Positions 26,884 through 40,213 of a stretch of DNA of 40,213 nt are shown in pieces; positions within the stretch are counted from its first letter, which is position 1; every line of letters starts with the position of its first letter. The stretch comes from an uncultured Flavobacteriaceae bacterium (GTDB lineage: Bacteria > Bacteroidota > Bacteroidia > Flavobacteriales > Flavobacteriaceae). The position numbers and the translations under genes were made by a program. Location: assembly GCA_947494715.1 (NCBI GenBank), contig CANLWG010000025.1:1-40213 (forward strand). Direction: 5' to 3'. Under the pieces are notes generated by a model that saw nothing but the letters and a program-made list of their open reading frames with translations, was not told where the DNA came from and made no database searches.

Positions 26884-26908
26884 CGTCCCTACCTAGGGGC
26901 GGTTTTTT
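26884..26908 (+). terminator. Rho-independent terminator, plus orientation
   Basis: A 7-bp stem CGTCCCT / AGGGGCG (one G-U pair) with loop ACCT is followed by GTTTTTT. On the minus strand it lies immediately after the stop of the 63-residue gene but has no T-tract there. It is strongest for plus-strand transcripts entering from the left. Confidence 0.6.
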
Positions 26909-27099
26909 CATTCCAAATTGCCTAGGTAGCCCTTCACCGCGTTTATAAGCGTATGGTAGTGGACCGTACAGTAATCCTGCCTATTGGCCGTTATTATGAC
27001 CTGGATTTCCAGTAGCATTTCACTGTGGGCTCTGTTCGCGTACATCTCGTATATCAGATGGTCGAAAGGTATGGCGCTTTCCTTGTCCCAGAACCTCAT
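26908..27099 (-). CDS. Small hypothetical protein (63 residues)
   Basis: This is a soluble, slightly acidic 63-residue protein (MRFWDKESAIPFDHLIYE... ending V-K-G-Y-L-G-N-L-E). Its ATG overlaps the stop of the upstream 64-residue membrane protein by 4 bp, so the two are co-translated. No family was recognised. Pairs of this size are common in phages and islands. Confidence 0.5.
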   Translation of the reverse strand: MRFWDKESAIPFDHLIYEMYANRAHSEMLLEIQVIITANRQDYCTVHYHTLINAVKGYLGNLE

Positions 27100-27290
27100 T
27101 GTTTAAAGATCTTGTCGGCCAGACCATCTATAAGGGGTTTCATGAGCCCCCCAATAAGTATGCAGGCCAAGAGCCATATTGCCTTTATAAGAAGGTGCAA
27201 CTGAAGGATATAAAGGGTAAGGACATAGACCGGGACGATCAACGCCAAATAGCATAGCAGCTTAAACAGTATCTTGAGATAGTTCTTCAT
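27096..27290 (-). CDS. Small two-helix membrane protein
   Basis: This 64-residue protein has two hydrophobic segments (about 9-27 and 32-50, with I-G-G-L-M-K-P at the second end). The N-terminus is basic (M-K-N-Y-L-K) and the C-terminus ends D-K-I-F-K-Q. The hairpin form resembles small holin- or toxin-type peptides, but no motif proves it. It is coupled to the downstream 63-residue gene. Confidence 0.5.
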   Translation of the reverse strand: MKNYLKILFKLLCYLALIVPVYVLTLYILQLHLLIKAIWLLACILIGGLMKPLIDGLADKIFKQ

Positions 27291-27320
27291 CTGTTTGTTT
27301 GACCATTGTATTCATGTTAG

Positions 27321-27485
27321 GTAACTTTTTTCTTTCAAATTCTTAGGGTTTGTCCTATTTGTAAATGTTTGGATGTTCCTTACAAGTTGGCCAAAGAAGT
27401 GGCTGGGCAGTGGATAAAGCATTTAAGCCCGGACTTGGAAAAATACGAGCTGGATTACTATTATCTCTTAAAGACCGTCCGCTAA
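27321..27485 (+). pseudogene. C-terminal remnant with C-P-I-C-K-C
   Basis: Fifty-four open codons after a TAG, without any start codon. The sequence reads R-V-C-P-I-C-K-C-L-D-V-P-Y-K-L-A-K, then W-I-K-H-L-S-P-D-L-E-K-Y and ends L-L-K-T-V-R. It looks like the tail of a zinc-binding protein cut off at its left side. A good terminator follows 60 bp on. Family not recognised. Confidence 0.4.
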
Positions 27486-27547
27486 AAAACAACGGCAGGT
27501 TTCTACTAACAATTACATTTAAATCCATTTTCCTGTTGTTTGTTTTT

Positions 27548-27576
27548 AAGGGTTGCTGTATTGGCAGCCCTTTTTT
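27548..27576 (+). terminator. Rho-independent terminator
   Basis: The 9-bp stem AAGGGTTGC / GCAGCCCTT (one G-U pair) with a 7-nt loop is followed by TTTT. It is downstream of the truncated plus-strand frame at 27,321, whose transcript it would end. Confidence 0.8.
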
Positions 27577-28052
27577 GTTTGCAAGAAATCTATTTGGCTC
27601 TGTTTTTCGCAGGCAACAACAGCGTTAATGTAATCTTAGTGTCCGTTACGTCCTGAACCTCTTGAAAAGCTGTGGTTTCAACGGATTCGCATGGAAAACA
27701 AGCAACAACAAAAATACCACATTTCAAATGTGGGCTAAATGGTCGCGCCAAGCCGTGCGCAACGTATTGCATGAAAAACAAAAATAGGGGTGAGTACCTT
27801 GAGGCAAGCGGCGGGATATTTACTTTTTGGGTTGATACAAAGAAATATATCTAACTGGGGTTTATTATTTTTGATTAAGTTTGTTTTGTTCACTCTAATT
27901 GTGGATTTTTTTTGTTTCCCAATAGAATAAACTAATTGACGTTATTATTTAGCAACAATTTTTGAATTAATCGAATAATAGTTGTTAACTTTAAAGATAA
28001 GTTTGATTTGAATATTGCTTTAGTTGTAATTAATTCAAACTGAGATATAGAA
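27577..28052. other. Gene-free leader of the AT-rich module
   Basis: There is no supported gene in these 476 bp. A palindrome CCACATTT-C-AAATGTGG sits at 27,717-27,733, followed by the GC-richer GGTCGCGCCAAGCCGTGCGC stretch. Base composition then drops sharply to AT-rich from about 27,850. This marks the left edge of the foreign-looking module. Short frames on both strands here look like shadows of the palindromic sequence. Confidence 0.45.
27998..28005 (+). promoter_or_regulatory. -7 box upstream of the TIGR04255-like gene
   Basis: TAAGTTTG matches TAnnTTTG exactly, 48 bp before the TTG start at 28,053. The nearest TTG upstream is only 13 bp away, closer than the usual 17-23, so the -33 element is uncertain. 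Confidence 0.4.
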
Positions 28053-28769
28053 TTGCGGGTTCCTAAAAAGATATTTCCAGACAGATTGAAAGATGCTATT
28101 GTAGAAATACATTATGCTAACTTTCTACCATTAGAATTAATCCCTGGAGTTATTTTTCATTTGTTGGATGATACTTACACTTATGCTAGCGCACCTTTAC
28201 ATCTAGATAAAAAAGTTTTTAGTAGCTATTATCCACATACTTCGTCATCCATTATATTTAATGATAATATTAAGGTTCTTTTGAGACGAAATTCTTTTAT
28301 TTTCAATTTTTTGAATACTTACATCGGTTGGGATGAATATTCAAAGGAGATAAGAAAGTTTATCAAAGCAATAATAGAAGCGCGTAAAGAACCCATTGAG
28401 TTTAATAGGGCAAGTGTAAGATATATAAGCGAATACCCAGACTTGGATTTGGAAGAAGGTTTTAAGTTTGAATTTACTTATGGAATGCCCCATATACAAT
28501 CGGATAAATTCACTATTAGGTCAGAATTTTCTCAGGATGACATGCTTATTTTCCTAAATTTGCAAAATAGTATTGAACTTACTAAGCAAGATGAAGATAA
28601 ATCTGCTTCCATTTCAATAGTTGATATAGATGTCCTAAAAGAAGATTTTAAAACAAGCGATTTAACCGAGCTACTGAAAATAATTACTTCAGTTCACGAC
28701 AAACAAAAAGAAATATTCTTTTCAATAATTAAGGAAGACTTTTTGAAAACCCTTAAACCAGAATACTAA
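28053..28769 (+). CDS. TIGR04255-family-like protein, first gene of a three-gene module
   Basis: This 238-residue soluble protein begins at a TTG codon; no ATG lies nearby in frame. It has the general look of TIGR04255 (sporadically distributed) proteins. An opening 'D-A-I-V-E-I-H-Y' strand is followed by mid-protein aromatic and charged blocks (I-G-W-D-E-Y, R-A-S-V-R-Y-I). The C-terminal half has 'V-D-I-D-V' and a helix 'L-L-K-I-I-T-S-V-H-D-K-Q-K-E-I-F'. Members often occur beside one or two unknown genes on variable DNA. Function is unknown; defence is a guess from context. The stop shares one base with the next ATG (TAATG). Confidence 0.7.
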   Translation: MRVPKKIFPDRLKDAIVEIHYANFLPLELIPGVIFHLLDDTYTYASAPLHLDKKVFSSYYPHTSSSIIFNDNIKVLLRRNSFIFNFLNTYIGWDEYSKEIRKFIKAIIEARKEPIEFNRASVRYISEYPDLDLEEGFKFEFTYGMPHIQSDKFTIRSEFSQDDMLIFLNLQNSIELTKQDEDKSASISIVDIDVLKEDFKTSDLTELLKIITSVHDKQKEIFFSIIKEDFLKTLKPEY

Positions 28770-29323
28770 TGGCGGCAACAATAGATAAGTCTAATATTAG
28801 TTTGCAACAGCGGCAAACTGCCAGTGTTTTTAAACATAAACAAAGAGGTGATGGATATTGCCTTGCCTTAAATAACTTCGTTCACTCCACTGTGCCGGCA
28901 GAAAGATATAATCATATAAGACCAAGTATTCATCAAAGTTTATATTTACATGAAACTAAAAATTTAGTTCTCCATTTAAATAGATTCAAGAAATTATGTG
29001 AATTAGATTCATCTTACAATTATGAGAATTTAAAAGGAGAGTTTACAAAAGTTATTTTCGAATTACTTTCACTTCCATTTGATAATATTTCCTACTCCTT
29101 AACCTTCGAGAATAGTGTATTTTTTATATTACTAAAAGATGATTTTGAGTTTCATCTAAATTATTTCTTTAATGATGAAAATTATGGGTTTGGCGAGGAA
29201 GCGGTTCTAATAACTTATATCAATGGAGTAAAGCAACCTTCGAAGGATGATGGTTTAGATGATGTAATTCTGCATCTAAAATCTATACTAAATCCTGAAG
29301 AAACTTATACTTTTTGGCTCTAG
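28769..29323 (+). CDS. Unknown protein of the TIGR04255-like module (184 residues)
   Basis: This is a soluble protein (MAATIDKSNISLQQRQ...) with no signal peptide or helix. It contains a Tyr/His-rich segment (S-I-H-Q-S-L-Y-L-H-E), and an alternating hydrophobic stretch around residues 110-135 (S-V-F-F-I-L-L-K-D-D-F-E-F-H-L-N-Y-F-F). It ends T-Y-T-F-W-L. Its start is fused to the stop of the first gene and its end overlaps the third gene by 10 bp, so all three form one translated unit. I recognise no family. Confidence 0.6.
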   Translation: MAATIDKSNISLQQRQTASVFKHKQRGDGYCLALNNFVHSTVPAERYNHIRPSIHQSLYLHETKNLVLHLNRFKKLCELDSSYNYENLKGEFTKVIFELLSLPFDNISYSLTFENSVFFILLKDDFEFHLNYFFNDENYGFGEEAVLITYINGVKQPSKDDGLDDVILHLKSILNPEETYTFWL

Positions 29324-30042
29324 TAATTAAATATGCCAAATATATTTGTAATTGGTTTAAGGGGATTTTTTCATCTTATAAAACCAAATATCCAAATCAT
29401 ATTCTTCCTTCGGAAAATAAGAAACTTATTGTTAGTGATATTTCTGATTGTTTATTAATTAGACATTTCTCAGAAAAATCAAATGTACCAGTTCTAGATG
29501 GCCCAAAGAATTACATTAACCAGGCTTATATTATTCACCCAAGTTCCAATATAAGTGATTTATCAACAAATCTATTGGGGATTTTTGGTTATGAGGAAGG
29601 AAAAATAAAAATAGTTGGAAATAAACTTCGTTATTTTAATACATATTGTCAACCAGACTTCAAACCTGAAATCCCTATACATCGGGAGGACTACCAAATT
29701 GAAGATGAAAGAAAGTTTTGGCATTTGATGGTTAAGGACGTTGAAAGTCTACAAGTTGAATATAATAGTGAAAATAAGAATTCCAAATCCTTCTTAGCAG
29801 AATGTAAAGTTCTTCATACTCCTATGAGGTGGAATTATTGGCATTTTTCTATTAGATGGTTAATCACAGAAACTAATCGTACTCCCTTTTTTTTAAATGA
29901 TTTACCTTCTAATCAACAAAAAAGATATTTTCGAAAAATAGCATCAGAAACACGCTCTATTATATCTATGAAGGCTAGAGTCGTTAACAATTTTACTTAT
30001 CGAAAAATAAAAGAATCTGAATATTTGAAAAAAGTTCTCTAA
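29314..30042 (+). CDS. Unknown protein of the TIGR04255-like module (242 residues)
   Basis: It starts at a TTG inside the end of the previous gene (10 bp overlap) and has no in-frame ATG near it. It is a basic, aromatic-rich protein. A short hydrophobic N-terminus (V-I-K-Y-A-K-Y-I-C-N-W-F-K-G-I-F) could be membrane-attached or amphipathic. A striking segment H-T-P-M-R-W-N-Y-W-H-F-S-I-R-W lies at about residue 168, with several Trp and His. A basic tail follows. No known family. The tight overlap means stoichiometric production with its partners. Confidence 0.55.
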   Translation: MALVIKYAKYICNWFKGIFSSYKTKYPNHILPSENKKLIVSDISDCLLIRHFSEKSNVPVLDGPKNYINQAYIIHPSSNISDLSTNLLGIFGYEEGKIKIVGNKLRYFNTYCQPDFKPEIPIHREDYQIEDERKFWHLMVKDVESLQVEYNSENKNSKSFLAECKVLHTPMRWNYWHFSIRWLITETNRTPFFLNDLPSNQQKRYFRKIASETRSIISMKARVVNNFTYRKIKESEYLKKVL

Positions 30043-30222
30043 GCTACACTTTTTACTTTAATCGTAACTCAAAATGTTCCAATACCATTTTCGGTAATTA
30101 ATACCTATCTACATTCATTACACATTTCAACTAATAATAATTGTTTAATATCCCGTTTTGATAATATCTATAATTTAGTATTTGACTTTCGATTCGGAAT
30201 CTTTTATACATATTAGTTTAGA
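30043..30222. other. AT-rich spacer after the three-gene module
   Basis: 180 bp of AT-rich sequence; no gene, terminator stem or repeat was seen. Confidence 0.5.
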
Positions 30223-30638
30223 TTGAAACCGAGTTTGAAGGTTTACAGAGAAAGATTAATACGGCATATAGAAAAGATTTTAAATTCGCAACATTGGCAA
30301 GATTTCCCTTCGTATGTCAAAGGATACATTCTTGATATTACGGAATTTAAAGAATCAGGGATACACAAAAATTTGGTGTCAGGTTGTTTTCATAGATTCA
30401 CCAATCTTCAATGATGCCAGGTATTTTCTTTTCGAACTTCGAAAACTATGATATCTTTTTTTTTGATGATACAAAATATGATTTAAGGGGTGATTTTAAG
30501 AAAGGAGACTATATTATTATTTCCGTTCAAGGTAGTTAATGGATTTCGGATGGAGCCCATATAAGCAATAAGTTTATTGTCGGTAATTCGATAGAGAAAA
30601 GTTATTTATACAATAGGTCAGTACAGCAATATATCTAG
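30223..30638 (+). pseudogene. Broken gene: frameshift plus in-frame stop
   Basis: A first frame (TTG at 30,223, 63 residues, ...I-E-K-I-L-N-S-Q-H-W-Q-D-F-P) ends at 30,414. A second frame opens at an overlapping ATG (30,411) reading M-M-P-G-I-F-F-S-N-F-E-N-Y-D and meets TAA at 30,537. It continues in the same frame with W-I-S-D-G-A-H-I-S-N-K to TAG at 30,636. The three pieces have coding-like composition, so a single gene has lost its frame twice. Alternatively the middle piece is a real 42-residue gene. Family unknown. Confidence 0.45.
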
Positions 30639-30644
30639 TAGGTT

Positions 30645-31466
30645 ATGAGTAAAAAAATGGAAAACAATAAGGAGAAAAAAATTCAAAGACTTATAGGATT
30701 CACCCGCAATGAGAAGATTGGACTTGGTGCATTACTTATTTTAATTGCCGCTTCCCCAATTCTTTTTTCGCAATTCAGCACATACTTCAGTTTTGAAAAC
30801 ACAGGTGAAATTGGGGATACCGTAGGAGGGATTACCGCACCTTTTGTAAACCTTTTAGCGGCATACTTGATTTATAAGTCCTTTACAGCACAGATTAGGG
30901 CAAATCAACAACAAAGGGACGACCATAAAGAGCAGATGGAACAGCTTAACAAGGAGCATAACTTCAATTATATTACAAACCTATTCTCTCTTATAAAAGA
31001 CGATTACTATGCTCATAATAAAATAGATAGCATGAGTAATTTGGGATATATTTACAGAAGGATGATTAGCATCGAGAGCCAGCCAAGTTTTATGGCGACC
31101 AATAACTATCCCAAATCTTCAGCACCTTATAGCATAGATTTTATGAAAAGTGAAATCAATGCCAGGATTAGAGACCCCATTCAAATAGTTAAGTCGCAAC
31201 TATTAAATATTAGCGTACTGACTCAGGAAATCAAAAATTCCAAACTTGATAAAGGAATTAAACACTTCTATAGAACAGAGATCGAGAAGATTCTTTTTGA
31301 TATGGACTTATGGATTCTCCTAAACCCCGCATTCACGAAACGAATGGAAGACCTAGAGATTTTCGGGGGATTTTTATCAAATAGTAGCGGTTATTCACAT
31401 TCAAAGTTGTATGCAGAAACTATTTCAAAAATGGGCTACAAGATAAGAACTCAATTAGATGGATAG
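30645..31466 (+). CDS. Putative phage abortive-infection protein (PF16872-like)
   Basis: This 273-residue protein has two N-terminal transmembrane segments (about 26-44 and 62-80). They flank T-G-E-I-G-D-T-V-G-G-I-T-A-P-F, the signature of the putative abortive-infection protein family PF16872. A soluble domain follows, with a coiled-coil-like Q-Q-Q-R-D-D-H-K-E-Q-M-E-Q-L-N-K segment. Such membrane proteins are thought to act on phage-infected cells, but the mechanism is not known. The start lies 7 bp after the broken gene, and a terminator follows the stop. Its position beside the unknown three-gene module suggests a defence-type patch. Confidence 0.72.
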   Translation: MSKKMENNKEKKIQRLIGFTRNEKIGLGALLILIAASPILFSQFSTYFSFENTGEIGDTVGGITAPFVNLLAAYLIYKSFTAQIRANQQQRDDHKEQMEQLNKEHNFNYITNLFSLIKDDYYAHNKIDSMSNLGYIYRRMISIESQPSFMATNNYPKSSAPYSIDFMKSEINARIRDPIQIVKSQLLNISVLTQEIKNSKLDKGIKHFYRTEIEKILFDMDLWILLNPAFTKRMEDLEIFGGFLSNSSGYSHSKLYAETISKMGYKIRTQLDG

Positions 31467-31522
31467 TATCTATAGCAAATAACGCCTCGACGTACAAAAA
31501 CCGTACAGAATTAAAAACAAAT

Positions 31523-31563
31523 AATACGTAACACACTAATTAATAGATTGTTACGTATTTTTA
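31523..31563 (+). terminator. Stem-loop terminator after the abortive-infection gene
   Basis: A perfect 11-bp stem AATACGTAACA / TGTTACGTATT with a 15-nt loop is followed by TTTT. The loop is long for a terminator, but the perfect arms and T-tract 56 bp after the stop codon support it. Confidence 0.7.
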
Positions 31564-31565
31564 AT

Positions 31566-31578
31566 GTGGTACCTCCAG
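31566..31578. repeat. Second copy of the tRNA 3' end motif
   Basis: GTGGTACCTCCAG recurs at 31,686-31,698, where it is the 3' end of the tRNA-Phe fragment. Here it is isolated. The 107 bp between the copies include an imperfect palindrome (CCCTCGG-CTTGCG-CTCGGG) and the tRNA terminator. The copy may be a scar of an older integration at the same tRNA, or a duplication. Confidence 0.55.
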
Positions 31579-31633
31579 TCATTCCCTCGGCTTGCGCTCG
31601 GGATGGACTTCGATTCTTGCGCTGGCGCACAAA

Positions 31634-31661
31634 AAAACGCCTTGCTTTCACAAGACGTTTT
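31634..31661 (-). terminator. Native terminator of the tRNA-Phe gene
   Basis: On the minus strand an 11-bp stem (AAAACGTCTTG / CAAGGCGTTTT, one G-U pair, 6-nt loop) ends in a run of T's. It lies about 25 bp past the 3' end of the tRNA fragment. Its presence argues that the fragment is the original chromosomal 3' end rather than a phage copy. Confidence 0.82.
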
Positions 31662-31686
31662 CTGCAGCCACCACTCGTGTGGCTCG

Positions 31687-31746
31687 TGGTACCTCCAGGA
31701 ATCGAACCAGGGACACACGGATTTTCAGGATTGAACTCTGAAAATC
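31687..31746 (-). other. Attachment junction: 3' fragment of tRNA-Phe with core inverted repeats
   Basis: On the minus strand, 31,728-31,687 read from the anticodon loop (C-T-GAA-A-A) through the 3' anticodon stem TCCGT, variable loop, T-arm with GTTCGATTC, and acceptor strand AGGTACC plus A. The 5' half of the tRNA is missing. It is replaced by unrelated sequence precisely at the loop, a known crossover point for tyrosine integrases. The arms GATTTTCAG (31,720-31,728) and CTGAAAATC (31,738-31,746) form a perfect 9-bp inverted repeat, like an integrase core site. One T-T mismatch is seen in the T-stem. The element thus extends rightward from about 31,730. Confidence 0.8.
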
Positions 31747-33750: not shown

Positions 33751-34425
33751 ATGGAGACAATTAGCGTAGAAAAGCCAAAGATCGGGGATGGAATCTACAC
33801 TTCGTCAGAAGTTGCGGAAATACTGAATATTTCCAAAAGAAGGGCTACATATCTAATAAAAGCTTATTCCGAGCAGAAATTCAAGGATCTCTCGAATTTC
33901 ACATATGTTTATAAAAATGAAAGGAGGAAAAGTATCAATTTCTATGGATTGATTGAATTGAAGGTATTCGACACTTTAAGATCCAACGGTTTCTCCTCCT
34001 ACCAGATTTTGGACGCCTATAAGGAATTTGCCAAGGAATATGGCACCAATTACCCTTTCGCGAAAAAGCAAGTCTTGTTCATGGGGAAAAAGATAATACT
34101 TCAAATCGGCGGTGGCTATAGACTTGTATCCGGTGAGAAAACCTTGCTCATTCCAAAAATAATCGAATCCTTCGCAAAGAAAATCGAATTTTCCGAGGAT
34201 GGTACCGCACTGAGATTGTTCCCTATCGGTATGAACAAGGATGTGGTAGTAGACCCAAATCATCAGTTCGGTGCCCCGACTGTAAAGGACACAAACATAA
34301 GGGCTTCAACACTTTGTGGTATGCATGAAGCCGGAGATAGCATTAAGTTGCTTTCGGCTTTGTACAAGATAGAAGAAAAATCCGTTAAGGACGCTATTGC
34401 GTACTGCCATCGAAAAGCCTCTTGA
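33751..34425 (+). CDS. VapB45-type antitoxin with DUF433 domain
   Basis: This 224-residue protein has an N-terminal MerR-like helix-turn-helix (about 16-45, Y-T-S-S-E-V-A-E-I-L-N-I-S-K-R). A central linker follows, then a C-terminal DUF433 domain (about 172-220: V-K-D-T-N-I-R-A-S-T-L-C... and V-K-D-A-I-A-Y-C-H-R). The pair DUF433 protein then PIN-like DUF5615 protein is the VapBC45 arrangement. It would bind the toxin and autoregulate its promoter. The stop overlaps the toxin ATG (TGATG). Confidence 0.78.
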   Translation: METISVEKPKIGDGIYTSSEVAEILNISKRRATYLIKAYSEQKFKDLSNFTYVYKNERRKSINFYGLIELKVFDTLRSNGFSSYQILDAYKEFAKEYGTNYPFAKKQVLFMGKKIILQIGGGYRLVSGEKTLLIPKIIESFAKKIEFSEDGTALRLFPIGMNKDVVVDPNHQFGAPTVKDTNIRASTLCGMHEAGDSIKLLSALYKIEEKSVKDAIAYCHRKAS

Positions 34426-34829
34426 TGAAAGTATTTTTTGACGAAAACTTTTCCCGCTTTTTGGTGTATGCCTTAAATGAGCTAGAGAAACCGTATGGTA
34501 AAATCGAGGTTTTTGCAACAATTGATTTTATGGCGGGTGCGACCGACGAAGAAGTAATCAGGCATGTGGCCGATAACAATGGAGTACTATTTACTAGGGA
34601 CACCGATTTTCATAAACAAAAACTACTAAGGGCCATAATAAATTCCAAAAAGGTCGGATTGGTTTACTTCGGTATAAGAAACACCAATAATTGGATGCAA
34701 GTAAGATATGTCATCTATAATTGGCATCTATTAAGGGAACAGATCATAAAAAAGAAAAAATCCTTTGCTTATCGGATAGTACGTGATGGCAAAGGTAAGG
34801 CCGCACTTGAAAAGATAGTACTGAAATAA
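34425..34829 (+). CDS. VapC45-type PIN-like toxin (DUF5615)
   Basis: This 134-residue protein has PIN-like acidic residues: F-F-D6-E7-N near the N-terminus, A-T-D41-E-E-V, and L-F-T-R-D59-T-D61-F, matching the DUF5615/VapC45 pattern. Such toxins are metal-dependent ribonucleases. The basic C-terminal tail (K-K-K-K-S-F-A-Y-R-I-V-R) could bind RNA. The ATG shares a base with the antitoxin stop, as usual for type II pairs. The pair lies just upstream of the repressor on the opposite strand, and would stabilise the element. Confidence 0.78.
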   Translation: MKVFFDENFSRFLVYALNELEKPYGKIEVFATIDFMAGATDEEVIRHVADNNGVLFTRDTDFHKQKLLRAIINSKKVGLVYFGIRNTNNWMQVRYVIYNWHLLREQIIKKKKSFAYRIVRDGKGKAALEKIVLK

Positions 34830-34840
34830 TCAACTAGGTT

Positions 34841-35314
34841 TTACTTATTAACCTCCTTGTCCTTTTTGTATAGCTCCTTCGCGTCCTGCTGGATCTCCTT
34901 TATGATTTCCTCCTTCAGCTTCAATTTGTCCTGCCTTTCCAATCTATTGGCCAGCTTTTCGATGAAAAGCTGGTAGAACTCGTCCTCCATCAGTTCATCG
35001 TGCCTCCTTATCATCGCGCGCAGAAGCTCGCTCAGCTTGTGCTTATCGGTTAAAATAGACTTTATCAAATCTGATAAGTCTATATCTGTGGTTACTGAAT
35101 CTTCCCTATTAGGCCTTAAACTACCTTCCCCTGTTTTGATCCATTCCTCAGAAATACCAAGATAATTGCATATGGCAGTAAGGGTGGTAGGGTTAGGATC
35201 CGTCTTTCCCTTTAAAAGTCTCCCAATTGTAGATTGGGATATTCCAGTCCCTTGGCTCAACTTATAAGGCGTTATACGCCTTTCCGCTAGAATATTTTTA
35301 AGCCTTTCAATCAC
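34841..35314 (-). CDS. Cro/CI-family repressor with HTH and coiled C-terminus
   Basis: This 157-residue protein has an HTH_XRE domain at about residues 5-62 (Y-K-L-S-Q-G-T-G-I-S-Q-S-T-I-G-R-L-L-K-G-K as the recognition unit). A long charged helical part follows (about 75-157, L-S-E-L-L-R-A-M-I-R-R-H...). It lacks the S24 peptidase domain of SOS-cleaved CI proteins, so release from repression must use another route. It is divergent from the early operon with shared operators between them, the standard lysogeny switch layout. Confidence 0.85.
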   Translation of the reverse strand: MIERLKNILAERRITPYKLSQGTGISQSTIGRLLKGKTDPNPTTLTAICNYLGISEEWIKTGEGSLRPNREDSVTTDIDLSDLIKSILTDKHKLSELLRAMIRRHDELMEDEFYQLFIEKLANRLERQDKLKLKEEIIKEIQQDAKELYKKDKEVNK

Positions 35315-38119: not shown

Positions 38120-38713
38120 ATGAGTAACGAAAATCAAATACAAAAAGGACGCTTCCTGCCTGATAACTATCAGATCCCCGACAAGGCGAAACAATTTTTA
38201 AAACTCGATACAGGGGACAATGTAATCCGATTTCTTTCGAACCCATTGATGGGATGGGTGTTCTTCTCCGAGGACAATAAGCCCGTCAGGAGGCAATACG
38301 ATGCCACCTCACCTACATTGGGCGATTTCTCCAAGGAGGAAATGACGGAACTAAGGGCCAAGATCGACAAGGAAACGGGTGCTTTCGAAGGAAGCCGACA
38401 TTTCTGGCTCGGACTGGTATGGGATACAAAAACGGAATCCCCAAAAATATTGGAACTGACCCAGTCCACCATCCTAAAGCCTATGTACAACCTTTTTACC
38501 GATAAGGATTGGGGCGATCTAAGGAATTACGATGTGAACATCCATAAGGAGGGTTCAACAAAGAACAATACGGAGTACTCCATCAGCCCGAAGCCCGCCA
38601 AGCCTTTGAGCAAGGATATAATTGCTGTAGTGGAGGAACTTGAGGCCAATAACCTGTTAGACCTTTCCGCGATATGGAGGAATGAATATCCATTTGAAAA
38701 ATATCTCTACTGA
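38120..38713 (+). CDS. gp32-like single-stranded DNA-binding protein
   Basis: This 197-residue protein opens with a flexible polar start, then F-L-K-L-D-T-G-D-N-V-I-R-F-L-S-N-P, a strand-forming motif seen in T4 gp32-like and other phage ssDNA-binding proteins. The C-terminus is K-P-L-S-K-D-I-I..., then acidic/hydrophobic. Its position between the DUF1351-like protein and the YqaJ exonuclease supports the role. The stop shares a base with the next ATG (TGATG). OB-fold placement is inferred; eye-level similarity is moderate. Confidence 0.65.
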   Translation: MSNENQIQKGRFLPDNYQIPDKAKQFLKLDTGDNVIRFLSNPLMGWVFFSEDNKPVRRQYDATSPTLGDFSKEEMTELRAKIDKETGAFEGSRHFWLGLVWDTKTESPKILELTQSTILKPMYNLFTDKDWGDLRNYDVNIHKEGSTKNNTEYSISPKPAKPLSKDIIAVVEELEANNLLDLSAIWRNEYPFEKYLY

Positions 38714-39432: not shown

Positions 39433-39895
39433 CCCCAAACAAATAGAGATACAATCCTTTGTGGACAATGGGCAGTTGACCAAGAACCGTGAACTCGTCA
39501 AGGAGGCCATTGAAAAATTCGAGGGCAAGCCTATAATCGTAATCATAAAAAGATGGTTCAAAAAAAGGAGCAACCGCCAGAACAATTACTACCACGGGGT
39601 TATCGTGGAGCATTGGAGGCATATCCTACGTGAGTACTGGGGGGATATATTGACCCACGACCAGGTACATGAATTCCTAAAGACAAATCTGAGCTATGAG
39701 GAATTCTTTGATGAGGATACCGGGGAAGTGGTCATGAACGAAATCACCGGATTGCCCATCAGGAAGATAAAATCCACCACCAAGAATACTACCTATTCAC
39801 AGGAGGAGTACAACGAGGCCTGTAGGCAATTGGCTTGGAACATGTTCGAATACACCATCCCATTGCCCGAATCAAAACTAAAAGCAATTTTTTAA
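39425..39895 (+). CDS. NinB-like phage recombination protein
   Basis: This 156-residue protein has K-K-R-S-N-R-Q-N-N-Y-Y-H-G-V-I near residues 44-58, the R-S-x-x-Q-N-x-x-Y pattern of NinB-type proteins. A helical segment Y-W-G-D-I-L-T-H-D-Q-V-H-E-F and a late T-T-Y-S-Q-E-E-Y-N-E-A-C follow. NinB acts with phage recombination proteins on ssDNA. The start overlaps the exonuclease gene, so they are translated together. Confidence 0.62.
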   Translation: MPNPKQIEIQSFVDNGQLTKNRELVKEAIEKFEGKPIIVIIKRWFKKRSNRQNNYYHGVIVEHWRHILREYWGDILTHDQVHEFLKTNLSYEEFFDEDTGEVVMNEITGLPIRKIKSTTKNTTYSQEEYNEACRQLAWNMFEYTIPLPESKLKAIF

Positions 39896-39896
39896 A

Positions 39897-40213
39897 ATGG
39901 AAAATTTCATATACAGAACAATTAACGGGGAATCTATAGAGATAAATGGAATCCGTAGGAACAGAAAAAAGGTAATCATACCTAACAAGATTGATGCCCT
40001 ACCGGTCACCCACATCGGGGATTGGGCGTTTCGTGGAAACCAGTTGACCTCCTTGGAGCTTCCCGACAGCGTCACCCACATCGGGTCTGGGGCGTTTGAT
40101 GGAAACCAGTTGACCTCCTTGGAGCTTCCCGACAGCGTCACCCACATCGGGGATTGGGCGTTTCGTGGAAACCAGTTGACCTCCTTGGAGCTTCCCGACA
40201 GCGTCACCCACAT
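39897..40213 (+). CDS. BspA/LRR_5-type leucine-rich-repeat protein (partial)
   Basis: It starts at ATG 39,897, 1 bp after the previous stop, and runs off the window. About 35 unique residues (M-E-N-F-I-Y-R-T-I-N-G-E-S-I-E-I-N) precede 22-residue repeats of the form H-I-G-D-W-A-F-R-G-N-Q-L, then T-S-L-E-L-P-D-S-V-T. This is the LRR_5/BspA-like pattern, seen in surface proteins and as recognition domains. No signal peptide is visible, so cytosolic or phage-associated use is possible. It follows the recombination genes directly, an unusual place. Confidence 0.85.
   Translation, partial: MENFIYRTINGESIEINGIRRNRKKVIIPNKIDALPVTHIGDWAFRGNQLTSLELPDSVTHIGSGAFDGNQLTSLELPDSVTHIGDWAFRGNQLTSLELPDSVTH
40007..40213 (+). 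repeat. 66-bp tandem coding repeats
   Basis: At least three copies of a 66-bp unit follow each other, beginning CACCCACATCGGG. Copies 1 and 3 are identical as far as seen, and copy 2 differs only at a few codons (D-W to S-G and R to D). Such near-identical repeats can gain or lose units by slippage or recombination without breaking the frame. Confidence 0.93.

What the first reader, a model, noticed from the sequence alone, without database searches (positions are those of the whole stretch)
28053..30042. Compact three-gene AT-rich module led by a TIGR04255-like protein
Three genes overlap by 1 and 10 bp, two start at TTG, and composition is clearly AT-richer than the flanks. The first resembles TIGR04255; the other two match nothing I know, and the third has an odd W/H-rich segment (H-T-P-M-R-W-N-Y-W-H-F-S-I-R-W). 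The module sits beside a putative abortive-infection gene and a tRNA attachment junction, a typical site for undescribed defence systems.
Basis: partly seen in the sequence, partly recalled or inferred. Interest (0 to 1): 0.72.

Follow-up and report, generated by a model that had tools for sequence, protein, structure and literature searches.

The report
Three-gene toxin-like module with TIGR04255 hub
A compact set of three genes, probably a self-poisoning switch of the kind bacteria use against viruses, in which an uncharacterised protein family is paired in different bacteria with different toxins; this copy carries a toxin candidate of an uncatalogued family.

Summary
In detail: three overlapping AT-rich genes (28053-28769, 28769-29323, 29314-30042), the first a true TIGR04255 member, the other two without a convincing library match. 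The recurrence test is passed: four genomes of four other families carry the same three genes in order, and profiles built from them alone find window genes 1, 2 and 3 at E = 4.9e-38, 1.3e-4 and 1.1e-19. The 'odd W/H-rich segment' is gene 3's conserved motif (HxPxxxN[YF]WH). More widely, 53 of 60 TIGR04255 matches, read by eye, are followed by a second and third gene; the third is interchangeable: PemK, HEPN, PIN, zeta toxin (plasmid), uncatalogued families, most often that of the window's gene 3. One module sits beside the portal gene of a P2-like phage, next to where an anti-phage hotspot is known. Best reading: a tripartite toxin-antitoxin (abortive-infection) module resembling TAC systems, with TIGR04255 in place of a SecB-like chaperone. 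Toxicity and defence are untested. The module is part of a 4.3-kb insertion beside tRNA-Phe, absent from a sister species. The neighbouring 'abortive-infection gene' is not confirmed.

The parts
28053..28769 (+). gene A, TIGR04255 family protein, 238 aa, TTG start; proposed common third component (stabiliser or sensor)
   Evidence: NCBIfam 64.1 bits, cut-off 30; profile from 4 other loci E=4.9e-38; AlphaFold pLDDT 71.7, pTM 0.74
28769..29323 (+). gene B, 184 aa, proposed antitoxin or adaptor
   Evidence: position between A and C; profile from B genes of 4 other loci E=1.3e-4; no convincing library match
29314..30042 (+). gene C, 242 aa, TTG start, proposed toxin or effector
   Evidence: profile from C genes of 4 other loci E=1.1e-19; hhalign of the 5-member group to 33 wider C proteins E=2e-5
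29809..29859 (+). conserved motif of gene C (V-L-H-T-P-M-R-W-N-Y-W-H-F-S-I-R-W), the 'W/H-rich segment'
   Evidence: H168, P170, N174, W176, H177 invariant in the window and 3 close relatives, and kept in the fourth, L085; H 33/33 and P 32/33 in the wider family
27267..31560 (.). 4.3-kb insertion that holds the module, absent in a species of the same genus
   Evidence: window 26903-27266 and 31561-31728 align 358 bp apart in G217
31686..31728 (-). 43-bp duplicate of the tRNA-Phe 3' end (attachment-site remnant)
   Evidence: 100% match to G000:C11:43745-43787, where ARAGORN calls tRNA-Phe; intact tRNA-Phe at this place in G217
30645..31466 (+). neighbour gene, 273 aa, same insertion, PHROG 8999 of unknown function; not shown to belong to the module
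   Evidence: no Pfam/NCBIfam/PADLOC match

Best explanation
A tripartite toxin-antitoxin-like module that probably acts by abortive infection. C is the toxin (uncatalogued family; in the wider family Ser and His are invariant, Arg and Pro nearly so). B is its dedicated antitoxin or adaptor, made just before it. A, the TIGR04255 protein, is the constant component that binds B or the B-C complex and keeps it inactive; a viral product that captures or removes A would release C. Shown: A, B and C recur as a unit; A stays while B and C are exchanged for other pairs, in some of which the third gene is a recognised toxin domain; the module is found in an insertion and in mobile elements. Inferred: that C is toxic, that B neutralises it, that A is stabiliser and trigger, and that the outcome is phage defence.
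For: Four other families carry A-B-C (L068, L073, L075, L085). 53 of 60 TIGR04255 matches, read by eye, have A-B-C on one strand; in the 51 loci measured A-B spacing is -26 to +12 and B-C -164 to +30 with earliest starts. Third genes include PemK, HEPN, PIN and zeta toxin. On a quick tree of 46 TIGR04255 proteins the fewest changes of effector label are 10 (least possible 6), and one clade (SH-aLRT 99) that holds the window also holds PemK, PIN and SxxCD effectors. Pseudomonas phage Dobby has A-B-C beside its portal gene; in E. coli P2-like phages the cos-proximal region between gpA and the portal gene is an anti-phage hotspot (passages of PMC9122126). Neighbours: a type IIG restriction enzyme 5 bp from L099's C, AbiJ upstream of L030's A, an E1-like gene upstream of L032's A. 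CmdTAC and MqsRAC are worked examples of three-gene TA phage defence (PMC9519451 section 9; PMC11618068 abstract).
Against: No experiment. C's fold is unknown (AlphaFold pLDDT 37), and the wide C profile has no convincing match among solved structures (best E=0.31). A nine-member C profile without the close relatives missed the window's C at E<=0.01, and a 16-member one ranked it first only at E=0.31, while the 17-member B profile did not show the window's B among its listed hits. A is not SecB-like: no SecB match for 13 members in Pfam at E<=5, nor in the 50 Foldseek rows shown of 748. Three of the four close relatives show no recognised defence gene nearby, by eye (L096, L097, L098), and no matched control for defence neighbours was run. 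Four B-C pairs stand without TIGR04255 (L050-L053), so A is not always needed.
Confidence: 0.55

Rival explanations
1. Addiction module: a TA system that only stabilises mobile elements (islands, prophages, plasmids), without a role against phage.
For: Insertion at tRNA-Phe in the window and about 0.4 kb from tRNA-Phe in L096, integrases just before L097's module, TIGR04255 genes on plasmids.
Against: Place beside the portal gene of P2-like phage Dobby; defence genes near L099, L030, L032; L098's module sits alone between core genes, by eye.
Confidence: 0.22
2. Roles reversed: B is the toxic component and C or A neutralises it.
For: B is the least conserved of the three; in PD-lambda-2 the toxic gene was not the expected one (PMC9519451 section 9).
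Against: The third gene, not B, carries PemK, HEPN, PIN and zeta domains in sister loci.
Confidence: 0.1
3. A non-toxin complex, for example a nucleic-acid-binding sensor (A has a TBP-like predicted topology) with enzymes of an unknown process.
For: Foldseek rows 1-26 of the A model are entries of TBP or complexes holding it, or AdoMetDC/prozyme (E 1.2e-4 to 4.3e-3).
Against: TM-scores of those rows, by query length, are only 0.26-0.34 with rmsd 9-17 A; several interchangeable partners are toxin domains.
Confidence: 0.1
4. Chance neighbours or decayed passengers of an old island.
For: AT-rich, TTG starts, other relics of tRNA-Phe integration nearby.
Against: The order recurs in four other families and the motif of C is kept.
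Confidence: 0.03

Closest known systems
TAC systems: CmdTAC, MqsRAC (PMC9519451 section 9; PMC11618068 abstract)
   Same: Three genes, exchangeable toxin-antitoxin pair plus a third component; phage defence by abortive infection shown there
   Different: Their third component is a SecB-like chaperone; TIGR04255 shows no SecB likeness by sequence or in the Foldseek rows shown; here the constant component is the first gene and the toxin candidate the last
Panacea (PanA) hyperpromiscuous antitoxins (PMC8832971, start of abstract in search listing)
   Same: One conserved partner protein combined with many toxin domains
   Different: Panacea is itself the antitoxin; TIGR04255 comes with a separate second gene that varies with the toxin
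TIGR04255 family of NCBIfam (model name sporadTIGR04255, no function given)
   Same: Gene A is a member above cut-off
   Different: Nothing was known to us of its partners; no paper in the searched library names it
PemK/MazF, HEPN, PIN and zeta toxin modules
   Same: Appear as third genes after TIGR04255 in sister loci
   Different: The window's C matches none of these families

Membership tests
TIGR04255 | score over NCBIfam cut-off | tested here: met
   64.1 vs 30 bits, positions 7-252 of 252
TAC (toxin-antitoxin-chaperone) | three genes in one operon with exchangeable toxin-antitoxin pairs | tested here: met
   architecture only: 53 of 60 TIGR04255 matches A-B-C by eye, 51 loci measured; fewest effector-label changes on the tree 10. 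That B is an antitoxin is inferred
TAC (toxin-antitoxin-chaperone) | third component SecB-like | tested here: not met
   no SecB match for 13 members in Pfam at E<=5, none in PDB by sequence at E<=1, none among 50 Foldseek rows shown of 748
TAC (toxin-antitoxin-chaperone) | antitoxin with a C-terminal chaperone-addiction extension | tested here: inconclusive
   B proteins vary widely; hydrophobic stretches in some, no shared motif found by eye
TAC (toxin-antitoxin-chaperone) | toxicity released when the third component is missing | not testable with these tools
   needs expression assays
type II toxin-antitoxin module | toxin of a recognised family | tested here: not met
   window C: no convincing match; met in sister loci
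family of C proteins ('PxH', my name: Arg, Ser, HxP...N..H) | profile match and conserved R, S, P, H | tested here: met
   close group E=1.1e-19; group to wide family hhalign E=2e-5, probability 77, eight control comparisons E>=0.43; but profiles without the close group missed it
known defence system in PADLOC-DB 2.0.0 | any model match for A, B, C | tested here: not met
   0 families for all three at E<=1

The most novel reading that the evidence does not exclude
TIGR04255 is the hub of an undescribed class of tripartite phage-defence systems: a TBP-like-fold protein senses infection and controls interchangeable antitoxin-toxin pairs, and the window's C belongs to a new toxin family (invariant Ser and His, near-invariant Arg and Pro) that is its commonest effector in the genomes sampled.
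Probability: 0.35. Interest if true: 0.85.

Novelty: new variant of a known kind. Interest (0 to 1): 0.68.

Why it matters
TIGR04255 has been a family without a function. If it is a common control component for many toxins, one small set of experiments would give function to it, to its variable partners and to a large uncatalogued effector family, and would suggest that control of a toxin-antitoxin pair by a third protein, as in TAC systems, arose more than once.

Tried and rejected
Relatives of B in the same family of organisms: 1 of 299 genomes, the window's own; none of the window's B or C in plasmids. Five scans of viral contigs with A or C queries: no relative. Genome-contig scan with alignment A2: 3 loci, the same contigs as L007, L009 and L014. 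Two other C proteins (L053's, L051's) in plasmids: none. TIGR04255 of L017 in phages: none. Dobby's module in E. coli genomes by DNA: none. N-terminal extension of B as a chaperone-addiction segment: attempted with the Thermus B in plasmids, only itself found; left open. Internal repeat in A by sequence: none. AlphaFold of C: pLDDT 37, not used further. Rfam: nothing over the gathering scores. SecB-like identity of A: rejected. L067's third gene looks PIN-like by eye but Pfam did not confirm it. L003's HEPN is below Pfam's cut-off (17.7 against 22 bits).

Full report
OBSERVATION. GC falls to 0.290-0.305 over the module against about 0.35-0.45 around it. Gene A is TIGR04255: NCBIfam 64.1 bits, cut-off 30. 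B and C match nothing convincing (the best for C, ISAon1_upstream at E = 0.012 and 16.1 of 55 bits, is far below its cut-off).

RECURRENCE OF THE WINDOW'S OWN MODULE. A search for B in 299 genomes of the same family of organisms found only the window. TIGR04255 itself is sporadic: 24 of 395 genomes of the phylum, 4 of 296 of the order, 28 of 395 in a draw from the class, 11 of 195 in a draw from another class of the phylum; the draws overlap. Reading the loci showed four, in four other families, with A, B and a C of 215-269 aa that bears the same motif: L068 (HSPSKCNFWHF), L073 (HTPTCSNFWHF), L075 (HAPTKCNYWHY), L085 (HKPTYGNYWHF); the window has HTPMRWNYWHF. Profiles made from these four alone score the window's A at E = 4.9e-38, B at 1.3e-4 and C at 1.1e-19 in a background of 276 ORFs from the window and three fetched stretches; the next best ORF had E = 0.076 (for A; it is the window's own C), 0.26 (B) and 0.97 (C).

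THE WIDER SYSTEM. Searches give 60 distinct TIGR04255 matches, the window included. By reading, 53 are followed on the same strand by a B and a C gene; 3 have a broken A (L021, L064, L094), 1 is under the cut-off and not a gene of this kind (L026), 3 are cut by a contig end (L071, L086, L093). A script measured 51 loci, 46 of these 53 and five plasmid ones (two more, L014 and L095, failed its look-up by typed start): A-B spacing -26 to +12, B-C -164 to +30, taking the earliest starts, so overlaps are upper bounds. Third genes of the 53: the C family of the window in a wide sense ('PxH') 34, PemK 5, 'SxxCD' 5, 'KITRAKW' 3, HEPN 2, PIN 2, DUF7689 2. The names in quotes are mine, and class membership was read by eye except where a library is cited: PemK E = 4.1e-13 (L011) and 1.2e-9 (L012), PIN 1.5e-10 (L074), HEPN 1.1e-4 (L070) and DUF7689 1.1e-34 (L040). 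L003's HEPN is under Pfam's cut-off and L067's PIN is unconfirmed. Of 8 plasmid or phage loci read (L029-L035, L095): SxxCD 3, HEPN 1 (L029, 4.2e-6), KITRAKW 1, zeta toxin 1 (L034, 3.1e-12), other 2 (L031, L032) (Pfam values).

THE C FAMILY. In 33 wide C proteins aligned, Ser and His are invariant (33/33), Pro 32/33, Arg 30/33. The five window-type C proteins match that profile at hhalign E = 2e-5, probability 77, over 112 columns that pair the Arg, the 'LSV' Ser region and the HxP...N..H motif; eight control comparisons (wide B, the window-type A and B groups, five other third-gene families) gave E >= 0.43. Window-type B against wide B gave E = 0.0047 (probability 7.5), against 0.11 or more in its eight other comparisons. 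Results against: a nine-member C profile lacking the close relatives did not find the window's C at E <= 0.01 (14 of 395 genomes had a match), and a 16-member one put it first but at E = 0.31, while a 17-member B profile did not bring up the window's B among its listed hits. The link of the window to the wide family therefore rests on the bridging relatives. Four C proteins (L050-L053) stand after a B-like gene with no TIGR04255 before it; L053 has a different first gene.

EXCHANGE OF PARTNERS. On a quick tree of 46 TIGR04255 proteins the effector class needs 10 changes at the fewest (least possible 6; shuffled mean 16.6, none of 200 as low), so the label is clustered but not fixed; well-supported branches alone force fewer (4 for PxH, 4 for SxxCD). 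The window groups with L073, L075 and L068 (98), inside a 14-row clade (99) with PxH, SxxCD, PemK and PIN effectors (long branches present, 18 of 43 inner branches weak). L085, whose C is of the window's type, has its A elsewhere on the tree.

MOBILITY AND DEFENCE CONTEXT. In a species of the same genus (G217) the stretch 27267-31560 is missing and tRNA-Phe is intact. The window carries 43 bp of that tRNA's 3' end at 31686-31728 and phage-type genes to the right of it (repressor at 34844-35314 and single-strand-binding match at 38120-38710). In L096 the same module lies about 0.4 kb from a tRNA-Phe gene. Integrases precede L097's module; a type IIG restriction enzyme ends 5 bp from L099's C; L098's stands alone between core genes, by eye. 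AbiJ (E = 5.8e-20) and an E1-like gene (E = 1.5e-8) lie upstream of A in L030 and L032. L096, L097 and L098 show no recognised defence gene, by eye; no matched control was run. Pseudomonas phage Dobby, a P2-like phage, has A-B-C beside its portal gene; the far side of the module, across the record's start, was not looked at. Passages of PMC9122126 place an anti-phage hotspot in E. coli P2-like phages between gpA and the portal gene.

MECHANISM. TAC systems are the nearest worked example: an antitoxin that needs a third protein, whose capture by a viral product frees the toxin (PMC9519451 section 9; PMC11618068 abstract). The genetic plan here is alike, the third protein is not: 13 TIGR04255 proteins give no SecB match in Pfam. 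The AlphaFold model of the window's A (pLDDT 71.7, pTM 0.74) draws entries of TBP (or complexes holding it) and AdoMetDC/prozyme as Foldseek rows 1-26 (E 1.2e-4 to 4.3e-3), but TM-scores by query length are 0.26-0.34 and rmsd 9-17 A, so a TBP-like topology is a lead only. C could not be modelled (pLDDT 37). The toxin role of C, the antitoxin role of B and the trigger role of A are inference.

NOVELTY. No paper in the searched library contains 'TIGR04255' (5.39 million open-licence papers, main text); papers outside it were not seen. PADLOC 2.0.0 has no model that matches A, B or C at E <= 1.

Noticed in passing
window 33751-34829: To the right of the tRNA-Phe remnant, a possible second toxin-antitoxin pair: the gene at 34422-34829 matches PIN_10 (E 9.8e-11) and DUF5615 and overlaps a 224-aa gene before it by 4 bp.
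   Followed up: partly
window 31566-31580 and G217 L061 about 15062: Further partial copies of the tRNA-Phe 3' end (GTGGTACCTCCAG, GTGATACCTCCAGG), as if several elements had integrated here in turn.
   Followed up: partly
G920, L060 3750-19001: Another species of the genus has different cargo after the shared stretch, with a recombinase-like gene by eye, so the site may be a hotspot.
   Followed up: no
L050, L051, L052: B-C pairs without TIGR04255, each followed by a large protein (388-394 aa shown, cut by the locus end) that looks alike in the three loci.
   Followed up: no
window 39878-40213: Tandem repeat in an ORF (M-W-V-T-L-S-G-S-S-K-E-V-N-W-F-P...) at the end of the contig.
   Followed up: no
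L007, L009, L035, L063, L079, L095: An uncatalogued third-gene family with an 'S-x-x-C-D' motif, found in chromosomes, a plasmid and phage Dobby; no Pfam match for L009's nor for the three tested (L063, L079, L095).
   Followed up: partly
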